Positions 14,036 through 36,272 of a DNA stretch of 39,181 bases are shown here, one piece after another. How positions within the stretch are numbered: position 1 is the first letter of the stretch; the number at the start of each line of letters is the position of its first letter. The stretch is from Betaproteobacteria bacterium (lineage in GTDB: Bacteria > Pseudomonadota > Gammaproteobacteria > Burkholderiales > Rhodocyclaceae), in the NCBI GenBank assembly GCA_004295105.1, contig SHNC01000029.1, positions 1 to 39,181 of the forward strand, read 5' to 3'. The position numbers and the translations under genes are program-made. The notes under the pieces were generated by a model. The model ran no database searches and was not told the origin of the DNA. It worked only from the letters and a program-made list of their open reading frames with translations.

Positions 14036-14899
14036 ATGTCTGCGGACCAGCACTGGATTCTCACCGTTGCAGCGCCGAGTGCGCCAGGCCAAGTGGCGGC
14101 GGTATCGACGTTTCTCGACCGGCAGTCGTGCTACATCAGTGAATTCTCTTGTTTCGACGACGAGCTGAGCGGTCGCTTCTTCGTGCGTTGTGTGTTCAGG
14201 CCGGCGTCGGACAATCGGGCGATTCCGCCCACGATCCGGGAGGAATTCCGTCCGCTGGCCGCGCGCTTCGGCATGGATTGGGCGATGCACGAACTTCGCG
14301 AACGCCCGAAAGTGCTCATCATGGTGTCCAAGCTCGACCACTGTCTGCGCGACCTTCTCTATCGCTGGCGCATCGGCGAGCTGCCCATCGACATCGTCGC
14401 AGTCGTTTCCAACCATCCGGATCTTGCGCATCTGGCAAGCGCTGAGGGGATTCCGTTCCATCATCTGCCCGTCACCGAGACCACCAAGCCGCAGCAGGAG
14501 GCGAAGCTGCTGCAACTGGTCGATGACACCGGTGCGGAACTGGTCGTGCTGGCGCGCTACATGCAGATCCTGTCGGCCGAGCTGTGCGAAAAACTGTCCG
14601 GCCGCGCCATCAACATCCATCATTCCTTCCTGCCCGGCTTCAAGGGAGCGAAGCCTTACCACCAGGCGCACGCGCGCGGCGTCAAGGTGATCGGTGCAAC
14701 GGCGCACTACGTGACGAACGACCTCGACGAAGGTCCGATCATCGAGCAGGTCGTCGACCGCGTCAGTCACGCGCACAGGCCGGAGCAACTGCTGTCGGTT
14801 GGGCGGGACATGGAGTGCCAGGCGCTCGCGCGCGCCGTTCATTACCACGTCGAACGCAGGGTTTTCCTCAACGGCTCTCGCACCGTCGTACTACCATAG
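14036..14899 (+). CDS. purU: Formyltetrahydrofolate deformylase
   Basis: PurU hydrolyses 10-formyl-THF to formate and THF. The 287-residue product has an N-terminal ACT domain (about 6-85: ILTVAAPSAPGQVAAVSTFL) and a C-terminal formyltransferase fold. The catalytic Asn-His-Asp set is visible in INIHHSFLPGFKGAKPYHQA and in TAHYVTNDLDEGPII. ATG 14036 has AGGAG (14021-14025) 10 bases upstream. In Pseudomonas a purU paralog lies with the sarcosine oxidase genes. Here purU opens the creatinine/sarcosine island, consistent with recycling folate loaded by SoxBDAG rather than with purine synthesis. Confidence 0.95.
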   Translation: MSADQHWILTVAAPSAPGQVAAVSTFLDRQSCYISEFSCFDDELSGRFFVRCVFRPASDNRAIPPTIREEFRPLAARFGMDWAMHELRERPKVLIMVSKLDHCLRDLLYRWRIGELPIDIVAVVSNHPDLAHLASAEGIPFHHLPVTETTKPQQEAKLLQLVDDTGAELVVLARYMQILSAELCEKLSGRAINIHHSFLPGFKGAKPYHQAHARGVKVIGATAHYVTNDLDEGPIIEQVVDRVSHAHRPEQLLSVGRDMECQALARAVHYHVERRVFLNGSRTVVLP

Positions 14900-15032
14900 A
14901 CGTAGGATTCCTGTCTGCCCGCCAGCGTGCGGGTGACGGACCGCGGCGGGCGCTTCGTCCTCGAGGCGCCCGTGTGCCGTGTCGGATGCGCTTACCCGCA
15001 CCGGTGCAGAGTACTGTCCCTGCTGGACGACG

Positions 15033-16067
15033 ATGACAATGGCTCTTCCTGATGATTCCGGCAAGCACTGGGCTGGACGGGGCGGTGACGCGCCGGTCCG
15101 CTTCGGTTTCCTGCTGGTTCCGAGTTTCACGCTGATCGGCTTCGGTGCTGCGGTCGATCCGCTGCGCCTTGCCAACGTGGCGGCAAGGCGCACGCTCTAC
15201 GAGTGCATCACGTTGACGATGGATGGGGCTCCGGTGCGATCGAGCGCCGGGATCTGCGTGCAGCCGGATATGGCCGCGGTCGATGCGAAAAATCTCGACG
15301 CCGTCATCGTGATCGGCCCCAATCCTCTGCCTGCGGCCGGGACCGAGCCCATCATCCATTGGCTGCGCACGCTTGCCGCCAAGGGCGTATCACTCGGTGG
15401 CGTCGACACCGGCAGCTACTTCCTCGCCTGCGCCGGGTTGCTCGATGGCCACCGCAGCACGATCCACTGGGAGGACATGGATGCGCTGCTGGACCGCTTT
15501 CCGCGGCTGGTGGTGTCGAACAAGATCTACGAGGTCGATCGCGACCGCTGCTCCTGCAGCGGTGGCATCGCGCCGGTGGAGATGATGATCCACCTGATCG
15601 GCCTGGGCAGCGGAGGCCGCAAGGTGGCGGCTGCCGTCGCCGAATACCTGATTTACGAACGCCGCGGCCCCGACGAGCGACAGAGGACTTCGCTGCGCGA
15701 TGTGTCGGGCGCTTCGCATCCCAAACTGGTCGAAGCGATCAAGCTGATGGAATGCAACATCGAGGAGCCGCTGTCGATGGAGGAGCTGGCGGCCCACATG
15801 CAGTTTTCGGCGCGCCAGCTCGAGCGTCTGTTCCGCGACTCCCTCAACTGCACGCCACGGCAGTACTACCTGCAGTTGCGGCTGGAACGCGCGCGGCAAC
15901 TGCTTACCCGCACCAACCGGCCGATCGCCGACATCGTGATGGCCTGCGGCTTCGTGTCGTTCGCGCACTTCTCCCATCGCTACCACGCAGGCTTCGGCAT
16001 CTCCCCGAGTGCGGAGCGTCGCCGACAGGTTGGCGACGGCGAAAAGACCCCCAGGCCGCCCTCCTGA
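15033..16067 (+). CDS. GlxA-family AraC-type transcriptional regulator (creatine-side)
   Basis: The product is 344 residues from ATG 15033; GTG 14979 in the same frame is an alternative. An N-terminal DJ-1/PfpI-like domain (FGFLLVPSFTLIGFGAAVDP; about 20-195) is followed by an AraC-type DNA-binding domain with two HTH motifs (SMEELAAHMQFSARQLERLF and IADIVMACGFVSFAHFSHRY). Where catalytic DJ-1 proteins have cysteine, this one reads GVDTGSYFLACAG, so the domain probably only binds a ligand. GlxA-type regulators control glycine betaine, sarcosine and carnitine genes in Pseudomonas (GbdR, SouR, CdhR). Its place between purU and creA suggests control of creatine or creatinine use; that is inference. 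Confidence 0.88.
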   Translation: MTMALPDDSGKHWAGRGGDAPVRFGFLLVPSFTLIGFGAAVDPLRLANVAARRTLYECITLTMDGAPVRSSAGICVQPDMAAVDAKNLDAVIVIGPNPLPAAGTEPIIHWLRTLAAKGVSLGGVDTGSYFLACAGLLDGHRSTIHWEDMDALLDRFPRLVVSNKIYEVDRDRCSCSGGIAPVEMMIHLIGLGSGGRKVAAAVAEYLIYERRGPDERQRTSLRDVSGASHPKLVEAIKLMECNIEEPLSMEELAAHMQFSARQLERLFRDSLNCTPRQYYLQLRLERARQLLTRTNRPIADIVMACGFVSFAHFSHRYHAGFGISPSAERRRQVGDGEKTPRPPS

Positions 16068-16140
16068 AGGTGGCGTGGCGCGGCTGCGCTGGCTGCAACC
16101 GACTCTCCCTCTGCGGCCGATGTTCGACCGCATTTTCCGA

Positions 16141-16174
16141 CCTCCGGCGTCCCTCGCCGGAGGTTTCTTTTTTT
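16141..16174 (+). terminator. Intrinsic terminator after the GlxA regulator
   Basis: A 9-bp GC-rich stem (CCTCCGGCG, 16141-16149, with CGCCGGAGG, 16155-16163) and a 5-base loop are followed at once by TTTCTTTTTTT. This is a textbook Rho-independent terminator and separates the regulator from creA. Confidence 0.93.
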
Positions 16175-16358
16175 CGACGTGGCGATTTGTCGAAGTCGTT
16201 TTCACGCAAGCGCTCGTCGCCAACCGGCAATCCCGGGGGCGGCCCGACCTCTAGCATGACTTCCACGTTGCCGGTGCGCAAAAAGTCCGATAAGGCATAT
16301 CAGCGTGTAGCCGGCGAGCGTGTTGAACATCAATCCGAGACAGATAAAGGAGCGAGAC

Positions 16359-17603
16359 ATGACGAGTCTAGTGACGGGCGCCCAGTCGATGAGCGAGTTG
16401 AAGGACCTGCTGCGGATCGAGAACGGCGAGAAGGTGAAGCACACCTTCTCGGATCAGGAGTACATCGATCGCCAGACCAAGCTTCGCGCCTACATGGCGG
16501 CCAACGATATCGACGCGGTGCTGTTCACGTCGATGCACAACATCAACTACTACAGCGATTTCCTGTACTGCTCCTTCGGCCGCCCCTACGGCCTGGTGGT
16601 GACTCAGGAAAAGGTGGTGTCGATCAGCGCCAACATCGACGGTGGCCAGCCGTGGCGCCGCACCTTCGGCGACTACAACGTGGTCTACACCGACTGGCGT
16701 CGCGACAACTATTTCCGTGCGATCCAGCAGGAGATCCCGAACAAGGGTCGCGTCGGCGCCGAGTTCGACCATATCCCGGTCGAGCGCCTGGAAAAGCTCA
16801 AGGCCGCGCTGCCCAATGCCCAGATCGTCGATATCGGCGCCGGCACCATGCGCATGCGCATGATCAAGTCCGCCGAGGAAATCGCGCTGATCAAGCACGG
16901 CGCCCAGGTGTGCGACGTCGGCGGTGCGGCGCTGGCCGCTGCGGTGCACGAAGGCGTACCCGAGCATGAAGTGGCGCTGGCCTCGACCCAGGCGATGATC
17001 CGCGAGATCGCCAAGCGCTTCCCGGATTCGGAGCTGATGGACACCTGGACCTGGTTCCAGTCGGGCATCAACACCGACGGCGCGCACAACCCGGTGACCA
17101 CGCGCAAGGTTCAGAAGGGCGACATCCTGTCGCTGAACTGCTTCTCGATGATCTCGGGCTACTACACGGCGCTCGAGCGCACCATGTTCTACGATCACTG
17201 CGACGACGCCTCGCTCAAGCTGTGGGAAGTCAACGTGAAGGTGCACGAGGCCGGCCTGAAGCTGGTGAAGCCGGGCGTGCGTTGCTGCGACGTCGCCGCG
17301 CAATTGAACGAGATCTTCGCGGAGCACGGCCTGCTGCAGTACCGCACCTTCGGCTACGGCCACTCCTTCGGCGTGCTGTCGCACTACTACGGTCGCGAGG
17401 CTGGTCTGGAATTCCGTGAGGATATCGAGACCGTGCTCGAGCCGGGCATGGTGGTGTCGATCGAGCCGATGATCATGCTTCCGGAAGGCATGCCGGGTGC
17501 CGGCGGCTACCGTGAGCACGACATCCTGGTCGTGACCGCCGACGGTGCCGAGAACATCACCGGTTTCCCGTACGGCCCGCAGCACAACATCATCAAACGG
17601 TAA
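16359..17603 (+). CDS. creA: Creatinase (creatine amidinohydrolase)
   Basis: Creatinase hydrolyses creatine to sarcosine and urea. The 414-residue product is very similar along its length to the Pseudomonas putida enzyme: HNINYYSDFLYCSFGRPYGL, ISANIDGGQPWRRT, MDTWTWFQSGINTDGAHNPV, RTFGYGHSFGVLSHYYGREA. The fold is that of the M24 'pita-bread' enzymes, but the metal ligands are absent, as expected for creatinase. Catalytic and binding residues known from P. putida (His232, Glu262, Glu358) fall at His243, Glu273 and Glu369 here. ATG 16359 has AAAGGAG 8 bases upstream. It forms its own unit between a terminator (16141) and a hairpin (17613), 320 bases before crnA. Confidence 0.97.
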   Translation: MTSLVTGAQSMSELKDLLRIENGEKVKHTFSDQEYIDRQTKLRAYMAANDIDAVLFTSMHNINYYSDFLYCSFGRPYGLVVTQEKVVSISANIDGGQPWRRTFGDYNVVYTDWRRDNYFRAIQQEIPNKGRVGAEFDHIPVERLEKLKAALPNAQIVDIGAGTMRMRMIKSAEEIALIKHGAQVCDVGGAALAAAVHEGVPEHEVALASTQAMIREIAKRFPDSELMDTWTWFQSGINTDGAHNPVTTRKVQKGDILSLNCFSMISGYYTALERTMFYDHCDDASLKLWEVNVKVHEAGLKLVKPGVRCCDVAAQLNEIFAEHGLLQYRTFGYGHSFGVLSHYYGREAGLEFREDIETVLEPGMVVSIEPMIMLPEGMPGAGGYREHDILVVTADGAENITGFPYGPQHNIIKR

Positions 17604-17922
17604 AGCCGCAAGACCCCCTTGCGAGACCTGAAAGGAGGCCCAGCAAGGGGGTGCGTATCTCGCCGTTCTTGTCAAACAGAGGAAAATCCTCGCCGCTGAA
17701 GACGCGGCAGAGCAGACCGAAAGCGCACTTGGAATAATGAAGCATCCGCGCCCGGGAACAGCGTGATCATTTACATGCTCTTGGGCGCAACTCGACGTGC
17801 GCTGCAAAAAGGTGCTGATTAAAGGCGCCCGAATAACGATAATTCAAAGACGGCTCTGTCCGGATGGCCACCTGTGGGCGGTGTCCAGAAGGATCGAAAC
17901 AAGTCAAGGAGACAAGCTTCAA
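17604..17922. other. Intergenic region creA/crnA with a perfect hairpin
   Basis: These 319 bases start with a hairpin made of a perfect 10-bp stem (ACCCCCTTGC, 17613-17622, with GCAAGGGGGT, 17643-17652) and a 20-base loop that contains AAAGGAGG. No U-run follows, so it may protect the creA 3' end or stop transcription weakly. Further on there is GATAAT at 17838-17843, a possible -10 element for crnA, with no good -35. AAGGAGA (17906-17912) serves crnA. No further gene was recognised. Confidence 0.45.
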
Positions 17923-18693
17923 ATGAAAAGCGTTCACATTTCCGAGTTGGCGTGGCCCGAATACGATGCCTTGGTCCGTGACGGCAAGACGCCCGTCCTG
18001 ATTCCGGTCGGGGCGCTCGAACAGCACGGCCCGCACATGTCGATGAACCCCGACGTGCTGCTCCCCACTGCTATTTCCGAGCGCGTCGCTGACCGCATCG
18101 GCGCGCTCGTTGCACCACCGATCGCCTACGGCTATAAGTCGCAGCAGAAGAGTGGTGGCGGAAACCACATGCCCGGTACGACGAGCCTGGATGGCCTGAC
18201 AGTAACATCGACGATCCGCGACGTCCTGAAGGAACTTGCGCGTCATGGCGTACGTCGGACGGTGCTCATCAATGGCCATTATGAGAATTCGGCGTTCATC
18301 GTCGAGGGCGTGGATCTGGCGCAACGCGAATTGCGCTGGGATGGCATCCGCGATTTCTCAACCGTGGTTCTCTCCTATTGGGATTTCGTCACGCAGGAAG
18401 CAATCGACGCGATCTACCAGGGCGAATTTCCGGGCTGGGCGGTCGAGCATGGCGGGGTCCTGGAAACTTCATTGATGCTCCACCTGCATCCGCACCTGGT
18501 CGATATGGAGAAGGTCTGCGATCACGCTCCGGCGCAGTTTCCGCCGTACGACTTCTTCCCGATCAGGCCCGAATGGACGCCTGCGTCAGGTTGCCTGTCA
18601 TCGGCGAAACGTGCGAGCGCGCAGCATGGCGAGACGCTGCTGAAGGTTTGCGTGGACGGAATCAGCCACGAACTGGCAAGCGCCTTCGACTGA
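17923..18693 (+). CDS. crnA: Creatininase (creatinine amidohydrolase)
   Basis: Creatininase opens creatinine to creatine and needs two divalent metals. The 256-residue product aligns to the P. putida enzyme nearly without gaps: VGALEQHGPHMSMNPDVLLP, YGYKSQQKSGGGNHMPGTTS, INGHYENSAFIVEG, LSYWDFV, VEHGGVLETSLML. Metal ligands of the known enzyme (E34, H36, D45, H120, E122) map to E33, H35, D44, H119 and E121, all present. ATG 17923 with GGAGA upstream gives the family N-terminus. Part of its 3' end is duplicated, in decayed form, at 20532-20663. With creA upstream it converts creatinine to sarcosine in two steps. Confidence 0.97.
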   Translation: MKSVHISELAWPEYDALVRDGKTPVLIPVGALEQHGPHMSMNPDVLLPTAISERVADRIGALVAPPIAYGYKSQQKSGGGNHMPGTTSLDGLTVTSTIRDVLKELARHGVRRTVLINGHYENSAFIVEGVDLAQRELRWDGIRDFSTVVLSYWDFVTQEAIDAIYQGEFPGWAVEHGGVLETSLMLHLHPHLVDMEKVCDHAPAQFPPYDFFPIRPEWTPASGCLSSAKRASAQHGETLLKVCVDGISHELASAFD

Positions 18694-18967
18694 ATGCTGA
18701 CGGCCCTGCGCCGCGCCGAACGTCGAGATTCACGCAGCTCATCCCACGAGGGCGCTCATGATTGACGCTTTCGAAAGGGCGGATTGCTCGTGGGCAACAG
18801 ATGTTACCGCCAAACCCCGGCTCTTCGTTCGCTCCCCTTCAGCATAAGCCTGACGTGGGGTCGTGGAGGCTAGCCTCTTCGAGTTAAGGAGTTTGCGACC
18901 AAATCTAGGTGTTGTGAAGAAAAGCCGCGGGACGATCTCGCCGATTCCCTTGATCGGAGCGTCGATG
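18694..18967. other. Intergenic region crnA/permease, upstream part
   Basis: No gene is recognisable between crnA and the permease (18694-19016). The first 25 or so bases after the crnA stop are repeated after the remnant at 20664. The word TTGTGAAGA (18912-18920) also occurs inside the 38-bp repeat at 27695 and may be a half-site for a GlxA regulator, but the 22-bp partner is absent here. Confidence 0.3.
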
Positions 18968-18996: not shown

Positions 18997-19016
18997 AACT
19001 ATTGGAGACATGTCAA

Positions 19017-20498
19017 ATGAGTAACCATAGTGGTGATGCTGCTGACTTGGAAGAGATGCTGCAACCGATCCCGGAGAATCGGCGAACCAAGTCCGTTTGG
19101 GGACAGTTCTGGATCTGGTCGGGAGCAAACGTTGCGCCCATCAACTGGATTCTGGGCGCGCTCGGGATAAACCTAGGACTCTCGCTCGCGGACACAATTA
19201 CGGTCCTGGTGGTTGGAAATCTTTTTGGAATGCTTGGTTTTGGCGCCTTTGTGCTGCTTGGGCAACGAACCGGCGTCACCGGGATGGTGCTTTCCCGTGC
19301 CGCATTCGGCCGGTATGGGGCGTACCTGCCGGCCGCTATCCAGGCATCACTGGCGGTCGGCTGGTCAGCCGTGAATACTTGGATCATTCTCGATCTCGTG
19401 ATGGCACTATTCGGTCAGATTGGCTGGGTGGATCCTGCCGCGGAAAACTTCTGGTGGCGCCTGTCAACTGCAGCGACCATCATGACCGCCCAGGTCGTCA
19501 TCTGCTACATCGGGTATCGGGCAATTTCGGCGTTCGAGAAATGGACCGTGCCGCCCACTGTGCTCGTGCTGGTGGCGATGAGCCTTGTTGCCTGGACGCA
19601 GTTCGATATCAACTGGGCCTACGCGGGACCCGAAGGCAAGGTGCTGACCGGCATGCCTCGATTCGCTGCGATGAGTGCAGTGATGACCGCGATTGGTATT
19701 GGCTGGGGTATTGGCTGGTTTACGTATGCACCGGACTATTCGCGCTTCGTTTCGACCTCCGTGTGCAAGACGCGTCTTTACCTTGCAAGTACGCTCGGTC
19801 AGTTCATCCCCGTCGTGTGGTTGGGCGTGCTCGGTGCGACCTTGGCAACGAAGAATGGACTCGCTGACCCCGGCGCACTGATCGTCTCCAATTTCGGGGT
19901 TCTTGCGATCCCGGTGCTGGCGCTGGTCATTCATGGCCCAATTGCGACCAACATCATCAACCTCTACACATTTGGTGTTGCGGCTCAGGCTATGGACATC
20001 AAGATCTCCAGGCACAAGCTGTCTATCATGGTGGGCGTCTTCGCAATGCTGGCGGTCATGTTCTTCATGAAGCAGGACAACTTTGCACACGCGCTTGACG
20101 CTTGGTTGATCTCCATCGTGGCGTGGGTTGCTGCCTGGGGTGGCATCATGGCGGTGCACTTCTTCGTCTTTGAGCGCAACACGAAGAATTTCGACTTCCT
20201 CTTCGAGGGAGCGGAATCCAGGCACATGCTCAAAGTCAATCCGGCGGCAATGCTGGCATTCTTTGGTGGGCTGGGATGTACCTACCTTTTCATGTACGGG
20301 ATCATTCCGTTGTTCCAAGGCCCCATCGCCGTGGCAATGGGCGGGGTTGATCTCTCCTGGCTCGGCGGTTTCGTGAGCTCCGCCTTGCTTTACTACGTGA
20401 TGGGCCGACGGTATGCACTCCGTTATTCACCCGTCGCAAGATCGCAGGCGCCGAGGGTACCGATGGCAAAGGTACAAATGGTGAGGGGGCGTGCCTGA
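19017..20498 (+). CDS. NCS1-family permease (cytosine permease CodB-like); candidate creatinine importer
   Basis: The 493-residue product is an inner-membrane protein with about 12 hydrophobic segments. It has NCS1 hallmarks: an N-terminal WGQFWIWSGANVAPINWILG, then GQRTGVTGMVLSRAAFGRYG, and FTYAPDYSRF in the middle. NCS1 proteins import cytosine, hydantoins, allantoin and other small cyclic amides or ureides with Na+ or H+. Creatinine is such a ring, and the gene lies directly behind crnA, so creatinine is the likely substrate; that is inference from family and position. No cytosine deaminase gene is adjacent. ATG 19017 follows GGAGA; TTG 19002 is less likely. Confidence 0.85.
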   Translation: MSNHSGDAADLEEMLQPIPENRRTKSVWGQFWIWSGANVAPINWILGALGINLGLSLADTITVLVVGNLFGMLGFGAFVLLGQRTGVTGMVLSRAAFGRYGAYLPAAIQASLAVGWSAVNTWIILDLVMALFGQIGWVDPAAENFWWRLSTAATIMTAQVVICYIGYRAISAFEKWTVPPTVLVLVAMSLVAWTQFDINWAYAGPEGKVLTGMPRFAAMSAVMTAIGIGWGIGWFTYAPDYSRFVSTSVCKTRLYLASTLGQFIPVVWLGVLGATLATKNGLADPGALIVSNFGVLAIPVLALVIHGPIATNIINLYTFGVAAQAMDIKISRHKLSIMVGVFAMLAVMFFMKQDNFAHALDAWLISIVAWVAAWGGIMAVHFFVFERNTKNFDFLFEGAESRHMLKVNPAAMLAFFGGLGCTYLFMYGIIPLFQGPIAVAMGGVDLSWLGGFVSSALLYYVMGRRYALRYSPVARSQAPRVPMAKVQMVRGRA

Positions 20499-20531
20499 AT
20501 TGAGAGACCCTCATCATTCTTCCGGCAACGT

Positions 20532-20663
20532 TACGACGAGGTTCCCTAGGTGGAAGACATGAAGGGGATCTCGGTAAAAGGTGCGACCGCGTTGCATTGC
20601 CAGACGCTGCTGAAGGTTTGTACCGATAATTTCAGCCGCGGACGAGCGAACGTGTTCGACTGA
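20532..20663 (+). pseudogene. Decayed 3' end of a second creatininase gene
   Basis: The bases 20571-20663 align without a gap to the last 93 bases of crnA (18601-18693), 68 of 93 identical by hand count, with the same stop codon position; the match fades about 25 bases beyond the stops. In the crnA frame this reads SVKGATALHCQTLLKVCTDN, and 16 of the last 30 residues equal those of CrnA. A TAG stops the frame at 20547-20549 and nothing earlier resembles creatininase, apart from a YDxxP trace. It starts 33 bases behind the permease stop. The divergence suggests an old duplication or a remnant of a paralog, not a recent repeat. Confidence 0.8.
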
Positions 20664-20703
20664 ATGCCGGCGGCTCCGCGCCGCACTGTCCTCCGAATCC
20701 GAG

Positions 20704-20741: not shown

Positions 20742-21058
20742 TTGCCGTTTACCCGCATGCAGTTTTCCATGCCGTTCGGAATGTCGCCGACGCGACAACG
20801 AGTGTCGGGATCAGGAAATGCATCAGACCGTCCGATTTCCATACTGCTTGCGTCGAATTCGAGATCAAGAATGAAAAATCAGACGAATTCGAGAGTGACG
20901 CCGACCGGCGTCGTGTGAGTCGAGTTCGATGAGGAGGACGTTGCGCATACTCAGCCACGTATTCGAGCGCAAGGAATACTCCGGGAGGCAAAGAAGAAAT
21001 TGCCCGAGCACATCGCTACCGGAAAACAAAACAATGAATTCAGACCAAAGGAAAGCGA
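20742..21058. promoter_or_regulatory. Leader/promoter region of the Tsx-like channel gene with iterated near-palindromes
   Basis: Three versions of a 10-bp near-palindrome occur in a relatively AT-rich stretch: TCGAATTCGA (20853-20862), ACGAATTCGA (20883-20892) and TCGAGTTCGA (20920-20929). The first two are part of an 11-base direct repeat CGAATTCGAGA at a 30-base distance. They lie about 130-205 bases before ATG 21059, which suits an operator array. No clear -35/-10 pair or gene was recognised. Confidence 0.35.
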
Positions 21059-21895
21059 ATGAAGAGCAAGAGCATTAAACGCAAGGCGAGTGCCGGTGTG
21101 TTGGCCAGTTGCTGTGTCGCACTCGGAGTTGCAGGCGCCAGCAGCGCCTTCGCAACGGAGAGCTGGCAGAACACCAATGTGACCGTTGGTTACACGACCC
21201 AGTCGAAGGCGGATCCCGTATTTGGTACCGGCACGGCCGACGAGAAAATGACCACCGTGCGTCTGGAGCATTTTGGGGTTCACGAGTACGGCGACAACTA
21301 TTTTTTCTTTGATACCTACCATGGCAATAAGGTGGGTGGCGTATTTGACGGGGTTGGCGCAGGTTCGTTCGGTGATACCGCGAGCGACCAGTACTATGGG
21401 GTGTGGAATCCGCGACTGAGCCTGTCGAAAATGAGCGGAGCGAACCTGTCGCTCGGCTTCATCCAGGATGTATATCTGGCGGCGCGCCTGGAGCGTGGTT
21501 CGTATGCGAATTTCCGTGCCAATAATTTCGGCGTCGCCTTCGATCTGAAGGTTCCCGGTTTCAGCTTCTTCGAAACTGATTTCTATGCCCGTGGCGCCCG
21601 CTTTACAGGCGATGACGGAAGCACCACACGCACGCTGTTCTGGCGCACCTTTGCCATGCTGCCGTTCGAAGTGGCGGGCTTCAAGTTCGTTTGGTCGCCG
21701 TTGCTCCTGGTGAACTTCAACAACAAGGAGCGGGAAACCACCGTCTTCGTCCAGCCCGACCTCTGGCTGAAGCTCAACTCGCATTTCGACGTCGGCTATA
21801 GGCATGAGTACGCCACCTACAGCAAGCCGGATAGCGAGGGCGGGGGCAGGTATTCGCGCACCACGCCGACGCTGATGGTGCGCTGGAACTTCTGA
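21059..21895 (+). CDS. Outer-membrane channel, Tsx-like
   Basis: The 278-residue product has a signal peptide (about 1-33, MKSKSIKRKASAGVLASCCV followed by a hydrophobic core and AFATES). A beta-barrel-like sequence follows, with alternating aromatic residues and a C-terminal phenylalanine (LMVRWNF). Segments such as EHFGVHEYGDNYFFFDTYHG resemble the nucleoside-specific channel Tsx and its relatives. ATG 21059 has AAAGGAAAG upstream. Its place between the NCS1 permease and the ABC transporter suggests that it lets creatinine, creatine or a related small nitrogen compound through the outer membrane; substrate is inference. Confidence 0.78.
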   Translation: MKSKSIKRKASAGVLASCCVALGVAGASSAFATESWQNTNVTVGYTTQSKADPVFGTGTADEKMTTVRLEHFGVHEYGDNYFFFDTYHGNKVGGVFDGVGAGSFGDTASDQYYGVWNPRLSLSKMSGANLSLGFIQDVYLAARLERGSYANFRANNFGVAFDLKVPGFSFFETDFYARGARFTGDDGSTTRTLFWRTFAMLPFEVAGFKFVWSPLLLVNFNNKERETTVFVQPDLWLKLNSHFDVGYRHEYATYSKPDSEGGGRYSRTTPTLMVRWNF

Positions 21896-22036
21896 TTCGT
21901 TGCCCATTCGCAGCCGGTTTCATGGCCACCCGGCAAGGTTGGCAGACCGGTTGCGAGGTCCGATGTGTTTCTTCGGCCGAGAGAACTGCAGCAGCAGTCG
22001 TGGCCAGTTGGTCGACCAGTACCAAAGGAGTTGGAG

Positions 22037-23194: not shown

Positions 23195-23252
23195 TCTTGT
23201 TCCCTCCGGGCCGACTTCTAGTCGGTCCGGCATCGCTCCCGGAGTTCTCACC

Positions 23253-24904: not shown

Positions 24905-24955
24905 TCCACGGGCGCCTTCGCCTTCAGTAATTGATTCATTCTTGTGAGATTCATC

Positions 24956-26094: not shown

Positions 26095-26146
26095 ATCATG
26101 TTTCGGCTCCGGGCGGTCCGGGTGAATTGTGAGGTAGTCTGGCGGG

Positions 26147-26471: not shown

Positions 26472-26554
26472 AAGGGTTGTCGCCGCAGGTCTTACATCCC
26501 AGCGCGCGGCCCTGTCAGGGGCTGGCGCGCACGCGGCCGGGCTGCGTGAGCCGG

Positions 26555-27613: not shown

Positions 27614-27910
27614 CGGTGGTCTACCTGTTGTGCCCTGCAACGGCCAGGCGAGGCGCGGTCATCCCGTGACCGCCGATGCGAATCCTAGCAGGCTCTTGTG
27701 AAGAGGATTTGCGCGGCTTGTGCAAAGTTGTGCCGGCCTGTCTTTCCCACGGGGACGGCGCATCAGCCCGGCGCGACCGGTCCATATCAAGCAAGTCCGT
27801 GACGGATACAGGCAAAAGCGCGCGCAAGTAAGTTCCTAACATCTGTCTCCACCAAGTCGCAATCCGCACCGGGCGGCAGGCGGCAATAACCCAAAGAGGA
27901 GACGACACAG
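27614..27910. promoter_or_regulatory. Divergent control region of the GlxA regulator and the glyA-sox operon
   Basis: The 297 bases between the two starts contain the second copy of the 38-bp repeat (27695-27732), about 180 bases before glyA. I found no clear -35/-10 pair, as is common for promoters that need an activator. AGAGGAG (27895-27901) is the glyA ribosome binding site. Confidence 0.5.
27695..27732 (+). repeat. 38-bp direct repeat, copy 2 (candidate operator)
   Basis: See the copy at 26434. Here TTGTG occurs at 27696-27700 and at 27718-27722, exactly 22 bases apart, with a third TTGTG at 27728. Two half-sites on one face of the helix fit AraC-type binding, and the position between divergent regulator and glyA fits an activator site. 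The binding protein is inferred. Confidence 0.65.
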
Positions 27911-29173
<1,263 letters not shown>

Positions 29174-29194: not shown

Positions 29195-30574
29195 ATGGCG
29201 ATCAGTGTTTTCGAGATGTTCAAGGTCGGTATAGGGCCGTCCAGTTCCCACACGGTCGGCCCGATGCGTGCCGCCCTGACCTTCGTGTCCGGCCTCAAGG
29301 ACAGCGGCTTGCTGTCGCGGGTACGGCGCGTCCGCGCGGAGCTTTACGGTTCGCTGGGTGCGACCGGCAAGGGGCACGGCAGCGACAAGGCAGTGATGCT
29401 CGGGCTCGAGGGCGAGGCGCCCGACCTGATCGATCCGGACACGATCGACGCCCGGCTCGCGCGCGTCCGCGACGCGCGCAAGCTCTCGCTGCTCGGCATG
29501 CACGCGGTCGAGTTCAACGAGAAGACGGACCTCCTCTTCCTGCGCCGCCAGAGCCTGCCCTACCACCCGAACGGCATGCGCCTGATCGCCTTCGGCGAGG
29601 GCGACGTCGAGCTGGCAAACCGGGTGTACTACTCGGTGGGTGGCGGCTTCGTCGTCAATGAGGCGGCGGCGGGCGCCGACCGCATCGTCGAGGACCGCAC
29701 CGAGCTGCCGTACCCGTACCGCAACGCGGACCAGTTGCTCACGCAGTGCGCGGTCAATGATCTCTCGATCAGCCAGTTGATGCTGGAGAACGAGAAGGCC
29801 TGGCGCAGCGAGGCCGAGACGCGCAATGGTCTGCTGCACATCTGGAAGGTGATGCAGGCCTGCGTTCGGCGCGGTTGCGAGGCCGAGGGGGTGCTGCCCG
29901 GCGGCATGAAGGTGCGCCGGCGCGCAGCCGAGCTCTACCGCAAGCTGTCGAGCGCGCCCGAGGCCTCGCTGCGCGACCCGCTGACGACCATGGACTGGGT
30001 GAATCTGTATGCGCTGGCGGTCAATGAGGAAAACGCGGCCGGCGGGCGCATCGTCACCGCGCCGACCAACGGAGCGGCGGGCATCATCCCCGCGGTGCTG
30101 CACTACTACTACCGCTTCATTCCCGGTGCCACCGAGGACGGGGTGGTGCGCTTCCTGCTCACCGCCGCTGCGATCGGCATCCTGTTCAAGGAGAACGCGT
30201 CGATCTCCGGCGCCGAGGTCGGCTGCCAGGGCGAGGTGGGCGTGGCCTGCTCCATGGCGGCGGGCGCGCTGACGGAAGTCCTCGGCGGCACGCCCGAGCA
30301 GGTCGAGAACGCCGCCGAGATCGGCATGGAGCACAACCTGGGGCTCACTTGCGATCCGGTGGGCGGGCTGGTGCAGGTGCCGTGCATCGAGCGCAACGCG
30401 ATGGGCGCGGTGAAGGCGATCAACGCCGCGCGCATGGCGCTGCGCGGTGACGGCAAGCATTTCGTGTCGCTCGACAAGGTGATCAAGACCATGCGCGACA
30501 CCGGGCGCGACATGAAGGACAAATACAAGGAGACGTCCCGCGGCGGGCTCGCGGTGAATGTCATCGAGTGCTGA
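29195..30574 (+). CDS. sdaA: L-serine ammonia-lyase (iron-sulfur)
   Basis: The 459-residue product deaminates serine to pyruvate with a 4Fe-4S cluster. It begins [20 protein letters not shown], the hallmark N-terminus of bacterial one-chain SdaA/SdaB, and continues with [15 protein letters not shown]. The cluster cysteines lie in the C-terminal alpha domain ([35 protein letters not shown]). AGGAGGG lies 10 bases before ATG 29195. It is 21 bases behind glyA, so serine made from sarcosine goes straight to pyruvate. Confidence 0.96.
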
Positions 30575-30592
30575 GTGCGAGGAGAAAAGGTC

Positions 30593-31843
30593 ATGCAACA
30601 CTATTCAGGATTCGGGCTCGTCAAGCACGGGCTCAGCCATCACGAGAACTGGCAGCGCATGTGGCGCAATCCGGTGCCCAAGAGTCAGTACGACGTCATC
30701 GTCGTGGGCGGCGGCGGGCACGGGCTGGCGACCGCCTATTACCTCGCCAAGGTACATGGCATCACCAACGTGGCGGTGATCGAGAAGGGCTGGCTGGGCG
30801 GCGGCAACACCGCGCGCAACACCACCATCGTGCGCTCCAACTACCTGTGGGACGAAGCGGCCTGGCTGTACGAGCACGCGATGAAGCTGTGGGAAGGGCT
30901 GTCGCAGGATCTCAACTACAACGTGATGTTCTCGCAGCGTGGCGTGATGAACCTGGGTCACACGCTGCAGGACATGCGCGACATCCATCGGCGGGTGAAC
31001 GCCAACCGGCTGAACGGCATCGACGGCGAGGTGCTCGACGTCAAGCAGGTCCAGGAGATCGTGCCGATCATGGACTGCTCGCGCAACACCCGCTATCCGG
31101 TGCTGGGCGCCTCGTGGCAGCCGCGCGCCGGCGTCGCGCGCCATGACGCGGTCGCCTGGGGCTTTGCCCGCGGCGCCGATGCGCTGGGCGTCGATCTGCT
31201 GCAGCAGACCGAAGTCACCGGCTTTCGCATCAGCGGCGGCAAGGTGCTCGGCGTCGAGACCAACCGCGGCTACATCGGCGGCAAGACGATCGGCGTGGTC
31301 ACCGCGGGCAACTCCGGGGTACTGGCGAAGATGGCCGGCTTCAAGCTGCCCGTCGAGTCGCACCCGCTGCAGGCGCTGGTGTCCGAGCCGATGAAGCCCA
31401 TCCTCGACACGGTGGTCATGTCCAACCACGTGCATGGCTACGTCAGCCAGTCGGACAAGGGCGACCTCGTCATCGGCGCGGGTATCGACGGCTACAACGG
31501 CTACGGCCAGCGCGGCAGCTACCCGACGATCGAACACACGCTGCAGGCGATCGTCGAGCTGTTCCCGATGTTCTCGCGCGTGCGCATGAACCGGCAGTGG
31601 GGTGGCATCGTCGATACCTGCCCGGATGCCTGCCCGATCATCTCGGCGACACCGGTGGGCGGGCTGTTCTTCAACTGCGGCTGGGGCACGGGGGGATTCA
31701 AGGCGACCCCGGGTTCGGGCCACGTGTTCGCGGCGACGCTCGCCGAGGGCAAGGCGCATCCGCTGGCCGCGCCGTTCTCGATCGACCGCTTCATCTCCGG
31801 AAAACTCATCGACGAGCACGGCGCAGCCGGCGTCGCCCACTGA
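30593..31843 (+). CDS. soxB: Sarcosine oxidase subunit beta
   Basis: SoxB is the FAD- and FMN-binding subunit where sarcosine is oxidised. The 416-residue product has the dinucleotide motif [19 protein letters not shown] (about 33-51), the downstream [20 protein letters not shown] with the flavin-contact region, and a C-terminal [13 protein letters not shown] typical of the D-amino acid oxidase/DadA fold. ATG 30593 has GAGGAG upstream. It follows sdaA by 18 bases and precedes soxD by 12, in the usual order soxB-D-A-G. Confidence 0.97.
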
Positions 31844-31855
31844 GGAGAGGACATC

Positions 31856-32164
31856 ATGCTGCACATCTACTGTCCCTATTGCGAGGAATACCGCGAGGAA
31901 GAGGAGTTCCGGCCCAAGGGCGAAGCGCACATCGCGCGCCCGGCGGAACCGGAAGCCACCAGCGACGAAGCCTGGGGCGACTACCTGTTCTTCCGCAAGA
32001 ACCCGCGCGGGCTGCACCACGAGCAGTGGTACCACGCCGCGGGCTGCCGCAAGTTCTTCAACGCCACGCGTGACACCGTGAGCTACCAGATTCTCGAAAC
32101 CTACAAGGCCGGGCAGCAACCCACGGTGAGCGCCGCGGCCTCCGGCAAGAAGGTGGCAAAATGA
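31856..32164 (+). CDS. soxD: Sarcosine oxidase subunit delta
   Basis: The 102-residue product is the small zinc-binding subunit. The ligands are Cys6 and Cys9 (CPYCEEYREEEEF), His60 and Cys64 (WYHAAGC). The body of the family is about 90-100 residues, so the length is normal. Its last four bases (ATGA) overlap the start of soxA. Confidence 0.95.
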   Translation: MLHIYCPYCEEYREEEEFRPKGEAHIARPAEPEATSDEAWGDYLFFRKNPRGLHHEQWYHAAGCRKFFNATRDTVSYQILETYKAGQQPTVSAAASGKKVAK

Positions 32165-35100
32165 GCCAACGCAATCGTCTCGAGCAGGGCGGGCGCATCG
32201 ACCGCAGCCGCCCGCTGCGCTTCAGCTTCAACGGTGTCGGCTACCAGGGCTTTGCCGGCGACACCCTCGCCTCGGCGCTGCTCGCCAACGGCGTCGACAT
32301 CGTCAATCGCAGCTTCAAGTATGCGCGGGTGCGCGGCATCGTCGCCGCTGGCGCCGAAGAGCCCAATGCGGTGGTCCAGTTGGGCGCCACCGAAGCCTCG
32401 CAGGTGCCCAACGTGCGCGCCACGCAACAGGCGCTCTACGACGGCCTGACGGCCAGCAGCACCAATGGCTGGCCCAATGTCGACCGCGACCTGATGGGCG
32501 TCATCGGCAAGGTCGGCGGCAAGTTCATGCCGCCGGGCTTCTACTACAAGACCTTCATGTCGCCCGCGTCGATGTGGCCGAAGTACGAGAAGTACATCCG
32601 CAAGGCCGCCGGCCTCGGCCGCAGCCCCAGGGAGCGCGACCCCGACATCTACGACCACATCAACCGCCACTGCGACGTGTTGGTGGTGGGCGCGGGCCCC
32701 GCGGGCCTGGCGGCGGCGCTGGTGGCCGCGCGCGCCGGGGCGCGGGTGATCCTGTGCGACGAGCAGGAAGAGATGGGCGGCTCGCTGCTCGACTCGCGTG
32801 AGCCGATCGACGGTCGTCCGGCCGCCGACTGGGTCACCGCGGTGCTGCAGGAACTGGGCGCGATGCCCGACGTGCTGTTGCTGCCGCGCACCACCGCCAA
32901 CGGCTACCACGATCACAACTTCGTCACCCTGCACGAGCGGCGCACCGAGCACCTGGCCGACCTCGCCCCGTTGCAGAACGGCCGCCGCACTGTGCGCGCC
33001 CGCATGCACCGGGTGCGCGCCGGACAGGTGATCCTGGCCACCGGCACGCACGAGCGGCCGCTGGTGTACGCCAACAACGATGTGCCGGGCAACATGATCG
33101 CCGGGGCGGTGTCTGCCTACATTCACCGCTACGGGGTGGTGCCGGGCCAGCGCCTGGTGCTGTCGACCTCCAACGACCACGCCTACCGCGCGGCGCTCGA
33201 CTGGCGTGAAGCCGGGCGCGAGGTGGTCGCGATCGTCGATGCGCGCGAGAATCCGGACGGCGACCTCGTGGCCGAGGCGCGCAAGCGCGGCATCCGCATC
33301 ATCGCCGGCAGCGCGGTGATCGAGACGCGTGGCAGCCGGCGCGTATCGAGCGCGCTGGTGGCCAGGATCGATGTGGCCGGCTTCAAGGTGCGCGGTGCGG
33401 TCGAAGAACTGGCCTGCGATACCGTCGCCAGCTCGGGCGGCTACAGCCCGGTGGTGCATCTGGCCGCCCATACCGGAGCGCGCCCCGAATGGCGCGACGA
33501 CATCCTCGGCTTCGTGCCGGGCAAGGTGAAGGGGCTGATTCCCGCCGGCGGCGTCAATGGCGTGATGACGCTGGCCGACGTGCTCGCCGACGGCGTCGAG
33601 GCCGGCAGCCGCGCGCTGATCGAGACAGGCTACCGCGGGGTGGCGGTGAGGCTGCCCGAGGTGCGCAGGGTGCGCGAGGGCAAGGCGGCGGCGCTGTACC
33701 AGGTGCCGCACGTCAAGCCGGCGATGAGGGCGCCCAAGCAGTTCGTCGACCAGCAGAACGACGTCACCGCGGCCGGCATCGAGCTGGCCACGCGCGAAGG
33801 GTTCGAATCGATCGAGCACGTCAAGCGCTATACCGGCATGGGCTTCGGCACCGACCAGGGCAAGCTCGGCAACATCAACGGCATGGCGATCGCGGCGCGC
33901 TGCCTCGGGCAGACCATCCCGGAGACGGGCACCACGGTGTTCCGGCCGAACTACACGCCGATCACCTTCGGCGCCATTGCGGGGCGGAACTGCGGCGAGT
34001 TCTTCGATCCGCGGCGCTACACCGCGCTGCATGCCTGGCATGTGGAGCGGGGCGCCAAGTTCGAGGAAGTGGGGCAGTGGATGCGGCCGTGGTACTTCCC
34101 GCGCGGCAACGAGACCATGCACGAGGCGGTGCAGCGCGAATGCCGCGCGGTGCGCGAGAACGTGGGCATCCTCGACGCCTCCACGCTGGGCAAGATCGAG
34201 ATCCAGGGCAAGGATGCGCGCGAGTTCCTCAACCGCCTCTACACCAACGCCTGGACCAAGCTCGACGTCGGCAAGGCACGCTACGGCCTCATGTGCAAGG
34301 ACGACGGCATGATCATGGACGACGGCGTCACCGCCTGCCTGGGCGAGAACCACTTCCACATGACCACCACCACGGGTGGCGCGGCGGGGGTGCTCGACTG
34401 GATGGAGATGTGGCACCAGACCGAATGGCCCGAGCTGGAGGTGTATTTCAACTCGGTCACCGACCACTGGGCGGCGATGGCGCTCAACGGTCCGAACGCC
34501 CGCAAGCTGCTCGCCGAGCTCACCGACATCGACCTCTCGAAGGATAAGTTCGGCTTCATGGACTGGCGCGAGGGCACGGTGGCGGGGGTGCCGGCGCGGG
34601 TGTTCCGCATCTCCTTCACCGGAGAGCTGTCGTACGAGATCAACGTGCAGGCCAACCATGCGATGCACGTGTGGAAAGCGCTGTTCGAGAAGGGCGAGAA
34701 GTACGGCCTCACGCCCTACGGCACCGAGACCATGCACGTGCTGCGCGCAGAGAAGGGCTTCGTCATCATCGGCCAGGACACCGACGGCTCGGTCACGCCG
34801 GAGGATCTCGGCATGCAGTGGTGCGTCGGCTACAAGAAGCCGTTCTCGTGGATCGGCCGGCGCGCGCTGTCGCGCCCGGATACCAAGCGCACCGACCGCA
34901 AGCAGCTCGTGGGTCTGAAGCCGCTCGACGGCAAGCTGGTGCTCGACGAGGGGGCACAGATCGTGCTCGACAAGGAGGTGAAGATTCCGATGCCCATGGT
35001 CGGCCATGTCACCTCCAGCTACTTCAGCCCGACCCTGGGGCATTCCTTTGCCCTGGCGTTGCTCAAGGGCGGCAGCCAGCGCATCGGCCAGACCGTCTAT

Positions 35101-35187
35101 CTGCCGATGGCCGACGGCCGAGTACATGCCGCCGAAGTCGTCAGCCCCGTCTTCTACGATCCCAACGGAGACCGTCACCATGTCTGA
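32161..35187 (+). CDS. soxA: Sarcosine oxidase subunit alpha
   Basis: The 1008-residue product is the NAD- and folate-binding subunit. An N-terminal ferredoxin-like domain (about 15-110) precedes the NAD-binding Rossmann motif VLVVGAGPAGLAAALVAARA (about 171-190), which is followed by GDD-like nucleotide-binding segments and a C-terminal GcvT-like domain (from about 600) that binds THF and captures the one-carbon unit as 5,10-methylene-THF. Length and domain order are those of the tetrameric enzyme. Its start overlaps soxD by 4 bases and its end overlaps soxG by 8. Confidence 0.97.
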   Translation: MSQRNRLEQGGRIDRSRPLRFSFNGVGYQGFAGDTLASALLANGVDIVNRSFKYARVRGIVAAGAEEPNAVVQLGATEASQVPNVRATQQALYDGLTASSTNGWPNVDRDLMGVIGKVGGKFMPPGFYYKTFMSPASMWPKYEKYIRKAAGLGRSPRERDPDIYDHINRHCDVLVVGAGPAGLAAALVAARAGARVILCDEQEEMGGSLLDSREPIDGRPAADWVTAVLQELGAMPDVLLLPRTTANGYHDHNFVTLHERRTEHLADLAPLQNGRRTVRARMHRVRAGQVILATGTHERPLVYANNDVPGNMIAGAVSAYIHRYGVVPGQRLVLSTSNDHAYRAALDWREAGREVVAIVDARENPDGDLVAEARKRGIRIIAGSAVIETRGSRRVSSALVARIDVAGFKVRGAVEELACDTVASSGGYSPVVHLAAHTGARPEWRDDILGFVPGKVKGLIPAGGVNGVMTLADVLADGVEAGSRALIETGYRGVAVRLPEVRRVREGKAAALYQVPHVKPAMRAPKQFVDQQNDVTAAGIELATREGFESIEHVKRYTGMGFGTDQGKLGNINGMAIAARCLGQTIPETGTTVFRPNYTPITFGAIAGRNCGEFFDPRRYTALHAWHVERGAKFEEVGQWMRPWYFPRGNETMHEAVQRECRAVRENVGILDASTLGKIEIQGKDAREFLNRLYTNAWTKLDVGKARYGLMCKDDGMIMDDGVTACLGENHFHMTTTTGGAAGVLDWMEMWHQTEWPELEVYFNSVTDHWAAMALNGPNARKLLAELTDIDLSKDKFGFMDWREGTVAGVPARVFRISFTGELSYEINVQANHAMHVWKALFEKGEKYGLTPYGTETMHVLRAEKGFVIIGQDTDGSVTPEDLGMQWCVGYKKPFSWIGRRALSRPDTKRTDRKQLVGLKPLDGKLVLDEGAQIVLDKEVKIPMPMVGHVTSSYFSPTLGHSFALALLKGGSQRIGQTVYLPMADGRVHAAEVVSPVFYDPNGDRHHV

Positions 35188-35818
35188 TCTGTCCATCTTC
35201 GACCTGAACCCGGCGGCGGGCGCCAAACCCGAATCGCCGCTGGCCATGACCCGTGTCACCGTCGCGACCGTGGCCTCGGCGGCCAACGCCGGGGTGGTGG
35301 TGCGCGAGCACGCCTTCCTCGGGCACCTCATCCTGCGGGGCCGCGCCTCGGATCCGGCGTTCTGCGCCGGCGTCGAGCAGGCGCTCGGCCTGCCGCTGCC
35401 GCTGAAGATGGGGCCGCTGTCGCGCGACGAGGCGCGTGGGGTCAGCCTGCAGTGGATGTCGCCCGACGAGTGGCTGGTCATCGTTCCTGCCGGCAGCGAG
35501 TTCGCGACCGAGAAGCGGCTGCGCGAGGCGCTTACCGGGCACTACGCGGTGATGAACGTGAGCGGCGGCCAGACGGTGCTTGAGCTCAGTGGCCCGGCGG
35601 TGAGGGAGGTGCTGATGAAGTGCACGCCCTACGATGTGCATCCGGGCCACTTTCCGGTGGGCAAGGCCGTGAGCAGCGTGTTCGCGAAGAGCACGGCCAT
35701 CATCCGCCGCGTGGCCGAGGACCGCTGGGAGCTGGTGATCCGGCGCAGCTTCGCCGATTACCTGTTCCGCTGGGTGCTCGATGCCAGCGAGGAGTTCGGC
35801 GTTCATGTGGTCCAGTGA
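35180..35818 (+). CDS. soxG: Sarcosine oxidase subunit gamma
   Basis: The 212-residue product has the SoxG features: LQWMSPDEWLVIVPAG, a stretch around VSGGQTVLELSGPAVREVLM and a C-terminal RSFADYLFRWVLDA. ATG 35180 lies inside the end of soxA, indicating coupled translation. Its own end overlaps the folB-like gene by 14 bases. Confidence 0.95.
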   Translation: MSDLSIFDLNPAAGAKPESPLAMTRVTVATVASAANAGVVVREHAFLGHLILRGRASDPAFCAGVEQALGLPLPLKMGPLSRDEARGVSLQWMSPDEWLVIVPAGSEFATEKRLREALTGHYAVMNVSGGQTVLELSGPAVREVLMKCTPYDVHPGHFPVGKAVSSVFAKSTAIIRRVAEDRWELVIRRSFADYLFRWVLDASEEFGVHVVQ

Positions 35819-36272
35819 GGGAGGGGCCGCGGCCTTGCTCGAGGACGCACCGGCCGGTTCGCCGGTGCGCGGCTCGGCGATCAGCGTCCCGCCGCTTCCG
35901 GGCGATGACAGCATCTTCCTGCGAGGACTGCGGGTGGAAGCGCTCATCGGCGTCTACGAGCACGAGCGCCATGCGCCGCAGCCGTTGGTGGTCGATCTCG
36001 AGCTGGGTCTGGCCCACTCGCGCGGCTGCCTCAGCGACCGCATCGAGGATGCGGTCGACTACGCGGAGGTGGCCGCAGCGTTACGACGACACGCGCTGGC
36101 GAATCGTCGTGAGTTGCTCGAGGCATTTGCGCAGGATCTCGCTGACAGCTTGCTGAGGGACTTTGCGCTGGTCTCGGTCGCAGTGACCGTGTCGAAGCCC
36201 GGCATTCTGGATGCGGCCGACAGCATCGGTGTGTCGATCAGGCGCTGGCGTCGCCAGTGCAGCGACGCCTGA
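35805..36272 (+). CDS. folB: Dihydroneopterin aldolase (FolB-like), in the sox operon
   Basis: FolB cleaves 7,8-dihydroneopterin in folate synthesis. The 155-residue product has an N-terminal extension of about 35 residues and then the family core: IFLRGLRVEALIGVYEHERH, VDYAEV with Tyr86, LLEAFA with Glu106, and VTVSKPG with the catalytic Lys131. All active-site positions I can identify are kept, so it is probably active. ATG 35805 lies inside the end of soxG. Because SoxBDAG needs THF as acceptor, a folate-synthesis enzyme in this operon makes sense; epimerase or detoxification roles are alternatives. Confidence 0.85.
   Translation: MWSSEGGAAALLEDAPAGSPVRGSAISVPPLPGDDSIFLRGLRVEALIGVYEHERHAPQPLVVDLELGLAHSRGCLSDRIEDAVDYAEVAAALRRHALANRRELLEAFAQDLADSLLRDFALVSVAVTVSKPGILDAADSIGVSIRRWRRQCSDA

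What the first reader, a model, noticed from the sequence alone, without database searches (positions are those of the whole stretch)
14036..36272. Nearly complete creatinine-to-pyruvate catabolic island with uptake, folate recycling and two regulators
Seen: crnA, creA, soxBDAG, glyA, sdaA and purU all with intact active-site motifs, plus NCS1, Tsx-like and ABC uptake genes and two GlxA-type regulators, within 22 kb. Known: creatininase and creatinase give sarcosine and urea; SoxBDAG gives glycine and methylene-THF; GlyA and SdaA make serine and then pyruvate. Inference: the cell can use creatinine as carbon and nitrogen source with formaldehyde kept folate-bound. The combination with three transport systems and a folB-like gene in one island is unusual. 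Urease is not in the window, so the fate of urea is open.
Basis: partly seen in the sequence, partly recalled or inferred. Interest (0 to 1): 0.72.

Follow-up and report, generated by a model that had tools for sequence, protein, structure and literature searches.

The report
Creatinine-to-pyruvate gene island in Thauera
A bacterium related to Thauera carries, side by side, the genes to take up creatinine (a waste product in urine) and break it down to pyruvate; the pathway is known, but a shared DNA control signal suggests that an unassigned transporter and an outer-membrane channel belong to it.

Summary
In detail: purU, a GbdR-family regulator (R1), creA, crnA, an NCS1 permease, a Tsx-like channel, a four-gene ABC importer, a second GbdR-family regulator (R2), glyA, sdaA, soxBDAG and folB lie at 14036-36272. 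The chemistry is known. 'Unusual' is not supported: relatives carry nearly the same set, and Paraburkholderia joins creA to glyA-sdaA-soxBDAG-folB-purU. Urease is encoded elsewhere in the genome.

The addition here is regulatory. A GATR-type operator (two GTCG half-sites 21 bp apart) lies before creA and before tsx-ABC. The spacing stands out before creA (37 of 84 upstream regions; other spacers at most 7), recurs before tsx in 11 of 11 regions of relatives, and before the ABC operon in 4 of 5 Pseudomonas loci. This makes the polyamine-type ABC importer and Tsx-like channel likely creatinine or creatine uptake genes. A different conserved block precedes glyA; its regulator is uncertain, since one relative keeps the block without an R2 match. 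Away from the locus the operator pattern is hardly commoner than its reversed control. A crnA remnant and duplications in relatives show a reshuffled uptake module. Substrates, binding and growth are untested.

The parts
14036..14899 (+). purU, formyltetrahydrofolate deformylase
   Evidence: TIGR00655 305.8 bits over cut-off 285.95
14979..16067 (+). regulator R1, GATR/GbdR family (DJ-1/PfpI domain plus AraC HTH); proposed creatine/creatinine regulator
   Evidence: in 62 of 79 creA rows of named genomes an R1 hit lies on the same strand within 1.2 kb upstream of creA
16139..16165 (+). terminator-like hairpin after R1 (11 pairs, then a T run)
   Evidence: the scan as a whole found 12 against 11.1 expected, this is its longest stem
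16191..16231 (+). GATR-type operator before creA; half-sites GTCG at 16195 and 16216
16320..17603 (+). creA, creatinase (ORF; ATG probably at 16362)
17797..18693 (+). crnA, creatininase (ORF; ATG probably at 17923)
19002..20498 (+). NCS1-family permease, proposed creatinine importer
   Evidence: Pfam PF02133 130.8 bits; an NCS1 hit within 2.5 kb of crnA in 15 of 27 crnA loci
20571..20684 (+). remnant of the 3' end of a second crnA
   Evidence: 75% identical over 114 nt to 18601-18714; L016 has crnA-ncs1-crnA-tsx
20779..20819 (+). GATR-type operator before tsx-ABC; half-sites GTCG at 20783 and 20804
21059..21895 (+). Tsx-like outer-membrane channel
   Evidence: Pfam 23.4 bits, below cut-off; low-confidence 12-strand model whose best PDB match is Tsx 1tlw
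21965..23194 (+). ABC substrate-binding protein, PotD-like (ATG probably at 22037)
23028..24095 (+). ABC permease 1 (ORF; its start overlaps the upstream gene)
23999..24904 (+). ABC permease 2 (ORF; its start overlaps the upstream gene)
24944..26044 (+). ABC ATPase with TOBE domain
26555..27640 (-). regulator R2, GATR/GbdR family
27780..27820 (+). conserved operator-like block before glyA: GTCC-N17-GACGGATACAGGCAAAAG
27911..29173 (+). glyA, serine hydroxymethyltransferase
29195..30574 (+). sdaA, L-serine ammonia-lyase
30575..31843 (+). soxB, sarcosine oxidase beta
31856..32164 (+). soxD, sarcosine oxidase delta
32161..35187 (+). soxA, sarcosine oxidase alpha
35006..35818 (+). soxG, sarcosine oxidase gamma (ORF; the domain starts near residue 110)
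35781..36272 (+). folB paralogue linked to sox; a second folB is on contig C50

Best explanation
It is a creatinine/creatine/sarcosine catabolic locus of a Thauera-type bacterium, built from two parts. Part 1 (16.2-26.0 kb) takes creatinine in and cuts it to sarcosine and urea: a Tsx-like channel (outer membrane), a binding protein with a twin-arginine-like start and an ABC importer, an NCS1 permease, creatininase and creatinase. Part 2 (27.9-36.3 kb), with purU at the far left, turns sarcosine into pyruvate with the one-carbon unit held on folate. Shown: the genes, their families, their conservation, and conserved operator-like blocks. Inferred: regulator R1, or a close GATR protein, binds direct GTCG repeats 21 bp apart and switches on creA and tsx-ABC together; the ABC importer and the channel therefore carry creatinine or creatine; a different GATR-like block before glyA gives the sarcosine half its own switch (R2 is the neighbouring candidate, but the pairing is unsettled); urea goes to the urease encoded elsewhere.
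For: Enzymes over cut-offs. Nearly the same gene set in relatives; creA and soxA lie within 35 kb on one contig in 7 of 12 genomes. Operator: GTCG-N17-GTCG in 37 of 84 creA upstream regions, other spacers from 8 to 29 at most 7 of 84; outside the 16 rows of the window's own kin (15 with it), in which it was found, 22 of 68. It is present in 23 of 35 creA rows with an R1-like neighbour of 48% or more, in 0 of 27 with a more distant one (Fisher p 1.7e-8, relatedness not corrected), and in 10 of 17 without an adjacent one. Before tsx: 11 of 11 upstream regions of relatives, other spacers at most 4. Before the binding-protein gene of 4 of 5 Pseudomonas loci that have it (4 of 12 such loci in all); in the fifth, L084, it lies before crnA. 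A longer pattern occurs 5 times in the own genome, two being these promoters; reversed control 1. CdhR half-sites GGTCGC with a 15-bp spacer give the same 21-bp period and are said to resemble those of GbdR, SouR and ArgR (PMC5806209, passages). crnA has this ABC importer within 8 kb in 12 and an NCS1 within 2.5 kb in 15 of 27 loci; 3 have both, 3 neither. Urease.
Against: 47 of 84 creA upstream regions lack the operator, among them all Pseudomonas, Acinetobacter and Comamonadaceae loci examined, and 12 of 35 with a close R1 lack it. GTCG-N17-GTCG alone is frequent in the window (16 sites against 4.9 expected; 21 is a multiple of 3, so codon phase may inflate it), so single sites mean little. 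In 11 relatives the longer pattern has 40 matches against 30 in the reversed control; I place 20 of the 40 at creA or tsx. The matrix score of the tsx site (12.2) barely exceeds the best of five shuffles (11.2). No operator before ncs1 in 16 of 16 rows, so how ncs1 is expressed is not explained. G044 keeps the glyA block and R1 but has no R2 match at E 1e-60, and the window's R2 is closer (77-82%) to copies that mostly lie away from sox than to the regulator beside glyA in five Thauera-type genomes (68-72%). The ABC genes were not found in the G193 locus. No substrate was tested; the binding-protein model is too poor to read (mean pLDDT 49.5). Sarcosine oxidase of this type reduces O2 (PMC3691474, passage), so the route should be aerobic.
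Confidence: 0.8

Rival explanations
1. The enzymes work as stated, but the ABC importer and Tsx-like channel import something else (polyamine, betaine, sarcosine or a nucleoside), and creatinine enters through the NCS1 permease alone.
For: The nearest solved relatives of the binding protein bind putrescine or spermidine; the nearest fold of the channel is nucleoside channel Tsx (low-confidence model); 12 of 27 crnA loci have an NCS1 but no ABC importer nearby, 11 of them Burkholderia-like with an NCS1 of only 25-29% identity.
Against: The Pot equivalog cut-offs listed are missed (PotD 64 against 582, PotA 321 against 482, PotC 135 against 326, PotH 130 against 489). Of the PotD contact residues that I recall, D168, E171 and W229 are replaced, W34, W255 and Y293 kept, D257 is Glu. 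The ABC genes sit near crnA in three lineages (Thauera/Aromatoleum, Comamonas-like L077, Pseudomonas) and carry the same operator type in two.
Confidence: 0.25
2. The locus serves mainly sarcosine and betaine turnover; the creatinine genes are a strain-variable add-on used for nitrogen rather than carbon.
For: Lower G+C in crnA, ncs1 and tsx (57-60%) than in sdaA and soxA (68%), though glyA, soxD and soxB are 64-66% and crnA is 63-66% in G193, G167, G044 and L012; creatinase in only 5 of 199 family genomes, own included; duplications and a transposase in relatives; R2-type regulators near betaine genes in G167 and G205; creatine is a nitrogen source in P. putida, regulated by CahR (title in a reference list).
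Against: Creatinine genes and sox lie close together in 7 of 12 genomes; the complete route to pyruvate is present.
Confidence: 0.35
3. One GATR protein (R1) controls both halves; R2 regulates something else.
For: G044 has the glyA block and R1 but no R2 match; both blocks have GNC half-sites with a 21-bp period.
Against: Half-site letters differ (GTCG/GTCG against GTCC/GACG) consistently within each group; R2-like genes sit beside glyA in five Thauera-type genomes and the window.
Confidence: 0.3

Closest known systems
glyA-soxBDAG-purU sarcosine oxidase operon (Corynebacterium, Colwellia; similar clusters in Pseudomonas and Vibrio natriegens)
   Same: Same enzymes and folate-linked logic (PMC3691474, PMC12093977, passages)
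   Different: Here with sdaA and a folB paralogue inside the run, purU 13 kb upstream of glyA, creatinine genes between
Creatinine/creatine degradation clusters (Arthrobacter, Pseudomonas, Corynebacterium glutamicum)
   Same: Creatininase or creatinase with a transporter beside it (PMC8864220, passages)
   Different: In C. glutamicum MFS transporter CreT and regulator AmtR; here NCS1 plus ABC plus Tsx-like channel and GATR regulators
GATR regulators GbdR, CdhR, SouR of P. aeruginosa; CahR of P. putida
   Same: Same domain pair; operator with GTCG-containing half-sites at the same 21-bp period as CdhR (PMC5806209, passages)
   Different: Below the GbdR equivalog cut-off; CahR could not be compared (paper not held)
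PotABCD polyamine ABC importer
   Same: Same ABC subfamily
   Different: Below the equivalog cut-offs listed; part of the recalled amine-binding residues replaced

Membership tests
creatininase (TIGR04448) | equivalog score over cut-off | tested here: met
   354.7 against 235
creatininase (TIGR04448) | metal and catalytic residues kept (list recalled) | tested here: met
   read on the alignment to 1q3k
creatinase | closer to solved creatinases than to prolidases | tested here: met
   686 against 86 bits
heterotetrameric sarcosine oxidase | all four subunits over cut-off, adjacent | tested here: met
PurU | equivalog score over cut-off | tested here: met
   305.8 against 285.95
GATR regulators | DJ-1/PfpI domain plus AraC-type HTH | tested here: met
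   both proteins
GbdR proper | equivalog cut-off 480 bits | tested here: not met
   352 and 302 bits
GATR regulators | binding to the proposed operators | not testable with these tools
   only conservation and spacing were tested
Tsx channel | Pfam PF03502 cut-off | tested here: not met
   23.4 against 27.2 bits
Tsx channel | 12-stranded barrel like 1tlw | tested here: inconclusive
   12 strands, best match 1tlw, but mean pLDDT 56
Pot polyamine importer | equivalog cut-offs | tested here: not met
NCS1 permease | Pfam PF02133 cut-off | tested here: met
   130.8 against 23.5
NCS1 permease | NCBIfam TIGR00800 subfamily cut-off | tested here: not met
   127.7 against 353.1
FolB | equivalog score over cut-off and Glu/Tyr/Lys triad (recalled) | tested here: met
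   87.2 against 72.15; residues read

The most novel reading that the evidence does not exclude
A dedicated high-affinity creatinine (or creatine) uptake route from outer membrane to cytoplasm, a Tsx-like channel plus a PotD-like ABC importer, switched on together with creatinase by a GATR regulator through GTCG repeats 21 bp apart; the ABC part of this regulatory module is shared by Thauera/Aromatoleum and Pseudomonas.
Probability: 0.5. Interest if true: 0.5.

Novelty: new member of a known kind. Interest (0 to 1): 0.35.

Why it matters
Creatinine is an abundant nitrogen compound of urine and wastewater, where Thauera-type bacteria are common (recalled). If the operator reading is right, it assigns two orphan transport genes to creatinine or creatine uptake and gives a simple rule for finding further members. 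The sox-linked folB paralogue, in an operon whose oxidase uses tetrahydrofolate, is a small open question that becomes testable.

Tried and rejected
A known riboswitch before glyA: no Rfam family reached its gathering score anywhere in the window. A chance island: rejected by conservation. Reading the ligand pocket from a model: abandoned, mean pLDDT 49.5. Sequence search of the Tsx-like profile and of NCS1 against solved structures: no hits. A sigma-70 promoter scan found 3 against 2.8 in shuffles. Simple one-to-one pairing of R2 with the glyA block: not sustained. Papers with sarcosine oxidase, folB and dihydroneopterin aldolase, or with creatininase, creatinine, ABC transporter and operon: none found, in open-licence PMC papers only.
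Full report
Observation. Pfam and NCBIfam scans place crnA, purU, glyA, sdaA, soxB, soxD, soxA, soxG and folB over curated NCBIfam cut-offs. CreA is nearest to the solved creatinases (686, 611 and 558 bits; next family 86 bits), crnA to solved creatininases. The channel is only Tsx-like (23.4 bits, cut-off 27.2); a low-confidence model (mean pLDDT 56) has 12 strands and Tsx 1tlw as best match. The binding protein, permeases and ATPase are of the polyamine-type ABC subfamily but miss the equivalog cut-offs listed. The binding protein keeps two neighbouring arginines near its start in 9 of 9 aligned sequences, which I read as a twin-arginine signal (motif recalled).

Host. The window lies in contig C15 of a 3.87-Mb genome in 294 contigs. 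CreA is 99% identical to that of a proteobacterial MAG (KAN-75) and 98% to Thauera sp. 2A1. Creatinase at E 1e-80 or better is found in 5 of 199 genomes of the family, own included: patchy.

Arrangement in relatives. With regions from relatives it shows a variable but recurrent locus. G167 has purU, R1, an NCS1-family gene, crnA, tsx, ABC genes, creA, an MFS gene, glyA-sdaA-soxBDAG-folB in one run; G044 matches it gene for gene where hits were scored. G193 has purU, R1, creA, crnA, tsx, R2, glyA-sdaA-soxBDAG-folB, with a sodium:solute symporter, MTHFR and a BCCT transporter between, but no ABC hit. In the 12 genomes, creA and soxA share a contig within 35 kb in 7 (G000, G193, G167, G044, G201, G205, G206), are on different contigs in 4 (G199, G200, G202, G203), and soxA was not matched at E 1e-100 in 1 (G204). 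Paraburkholderia L019 and L020 have R1-creA-glyA-sdaA-soxBDAG-folB-purU in sequence. Of 27 loci with crnA, 12 have the ABC genes within 8 kb, 15 an NCS1 within 2.5 kb, 3 both and 3 neither.

Scars. Between ncs1 and tsx lies a remnant of the end of a second crnA (20571-20684, 75% over 114 nt to crnA). L016 has crnA-ncs1-crnA-tsx, a plausible earlier state. MAG KAN-75 has a second creA behind a DDE transposase gene, and Thauera 2A1 two sets of crnA, ncs1 and tsx. crnA, ncs1 and tsx have 57-60% G+C against 68% for sdaA and soxA, though glyA, soxD and soxB are 64-66%; in G193, G167, G044 and L012 tsx stays at 57-60% while crnA is 63-66%. I read this as a module that is copied and reshuffled.

Operators. 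Aligning upstream regions showed a conserved block before creA, GTCG-N17-GTCG-N6-GGMAA, and the same design before tsx. CdhR of P. aeruginosa, in the same regulator family, has half-sites GGTCGC with a 15-bp spacer (PMC5806209, passages): the same 21-bp period. Test: in 84 creA upstream regions (300 bases; own and close relatives included; three loci, L002, L062 and L071, dropped for short flanks) spacer 17 occurs in 37, other spacers from 8 to 29 in at most 7. Of the 16 rows L003-L017, the window's kin, 15 have it; of the other 68, 22. By neighbour (79 rows of L008-L086): 23 of 35 with an R1 of 48% or more, 0 of 27 with a more distant one, 10 of 17 with none adjacent. Before tsx: 11 of 11 upstream regions from 10 relatives, other spacers at most 4. 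Before the binding-protein gene: 4 of 12 rows, all Pseudomonas; before crnA 3 of 28 (L016, L046, L084); before ncs1 0 of 16; before glyA 0 of 26; before R1 3 of 48. In the own genome the longer pattern has 5 matches, two being these promoters, with 1 in the reversed control. In 11 relatives it has 40 matches against 30 in the control, 20 of the 40 at creA or tsx by place or sequence: away from the locus it is mostly chance. The short pattern is common in the window (16 against 4.9 expected).

Before glyA a different block, GTCC-N17-GACGGATACAGGCAAAAG, is conserved in 9 of 9 aligned regions with small changes. The shorter GTCY-N17-GACGGRTA is found just before glyA in 10 of 10 genomes; in all it has 20 matches against 21 in the reversed control, so its other matches carry no weight. 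R2 beside it is the natural candidate. But G044 has the block and no R2 match, and the window's R2 belongs to a subtype that elsewhere lies near betaine genes (G167, G205) or beside a Na+/H+ antiporter in the A. evansii creatinine locus (L181). The pairing is therefore open.

FolB. The genome has two folB genes, in the window and on C50, 35% identical. A folB hit follows soxG in 8 of 9 Thauera/Aromatoleum regions (not L110), in 3 of 4 other loci with soxG (L019, L020, L031; not Crenobacter L034) and in 0 of the 8 other genomes of the class with soxG (8 beside the own among 185 searched, window FolB as only query, 1.5-kb flanks). The catalytic triad, recalled from the literature, is kept. A role in folate supply for the oxidase is a guess.

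Urea. One urease alpha subunit gene (585 aa, 941 bits, cut-off 680) is on contig C92; other urease genes were not checked.

Verdict. A real, well-assigned catabolic locus of a known kind, with kin in its lineage. The added value is the operator evidence that ties the ABC importer and channel to creatinine or creatine use. I saw passages of PMC8864220, PMC7921472, PMC5806209, PMC12951989, PMC12093977 and PMC3691474; the CahR paper was not held.

Noticed in passing
window 26419-26481 and 27680-27742: 63-nt direct repeat (76%) on either side of R2; a similar sequence lies upstream of a Na+/H+ antiporter gene beside R2 in relative G193 (L103).
   Followed up: partly
window 20571-20684: Remnant of the 3' end of a second crnA between ncs1 and tsx.
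   Followed up: yes
window 26079-26373: 93% identical to a stretch behind the MFS gene that follows the second creA in MAG KAN-75 (L008 20423-20720).
   Followed up: partly
L181 4677-5453: Isochorismatase-family gene in the A. evansii creatinine locus, by position a candidate N-carbamoylsarcosine amidase, next to a DctP-type binding-protein gene.
   Followed up: partly
L178 8170-9342: One ORF matches part of GbcA and then part of GbcB (glycine betaine monooxygenase), as if fused by a deletion, near an R2-type regulator.
   Followed up: no
G000 contig C139:2756-3484: Second creatininase-family gene of the genome, 34% identical to crnA; function not examined.
   Followed up: no
L102 12422-13384: Methylenetetrahydrofolate reductase gene inside the creatinine locus of relative G193.
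   Followed up: no
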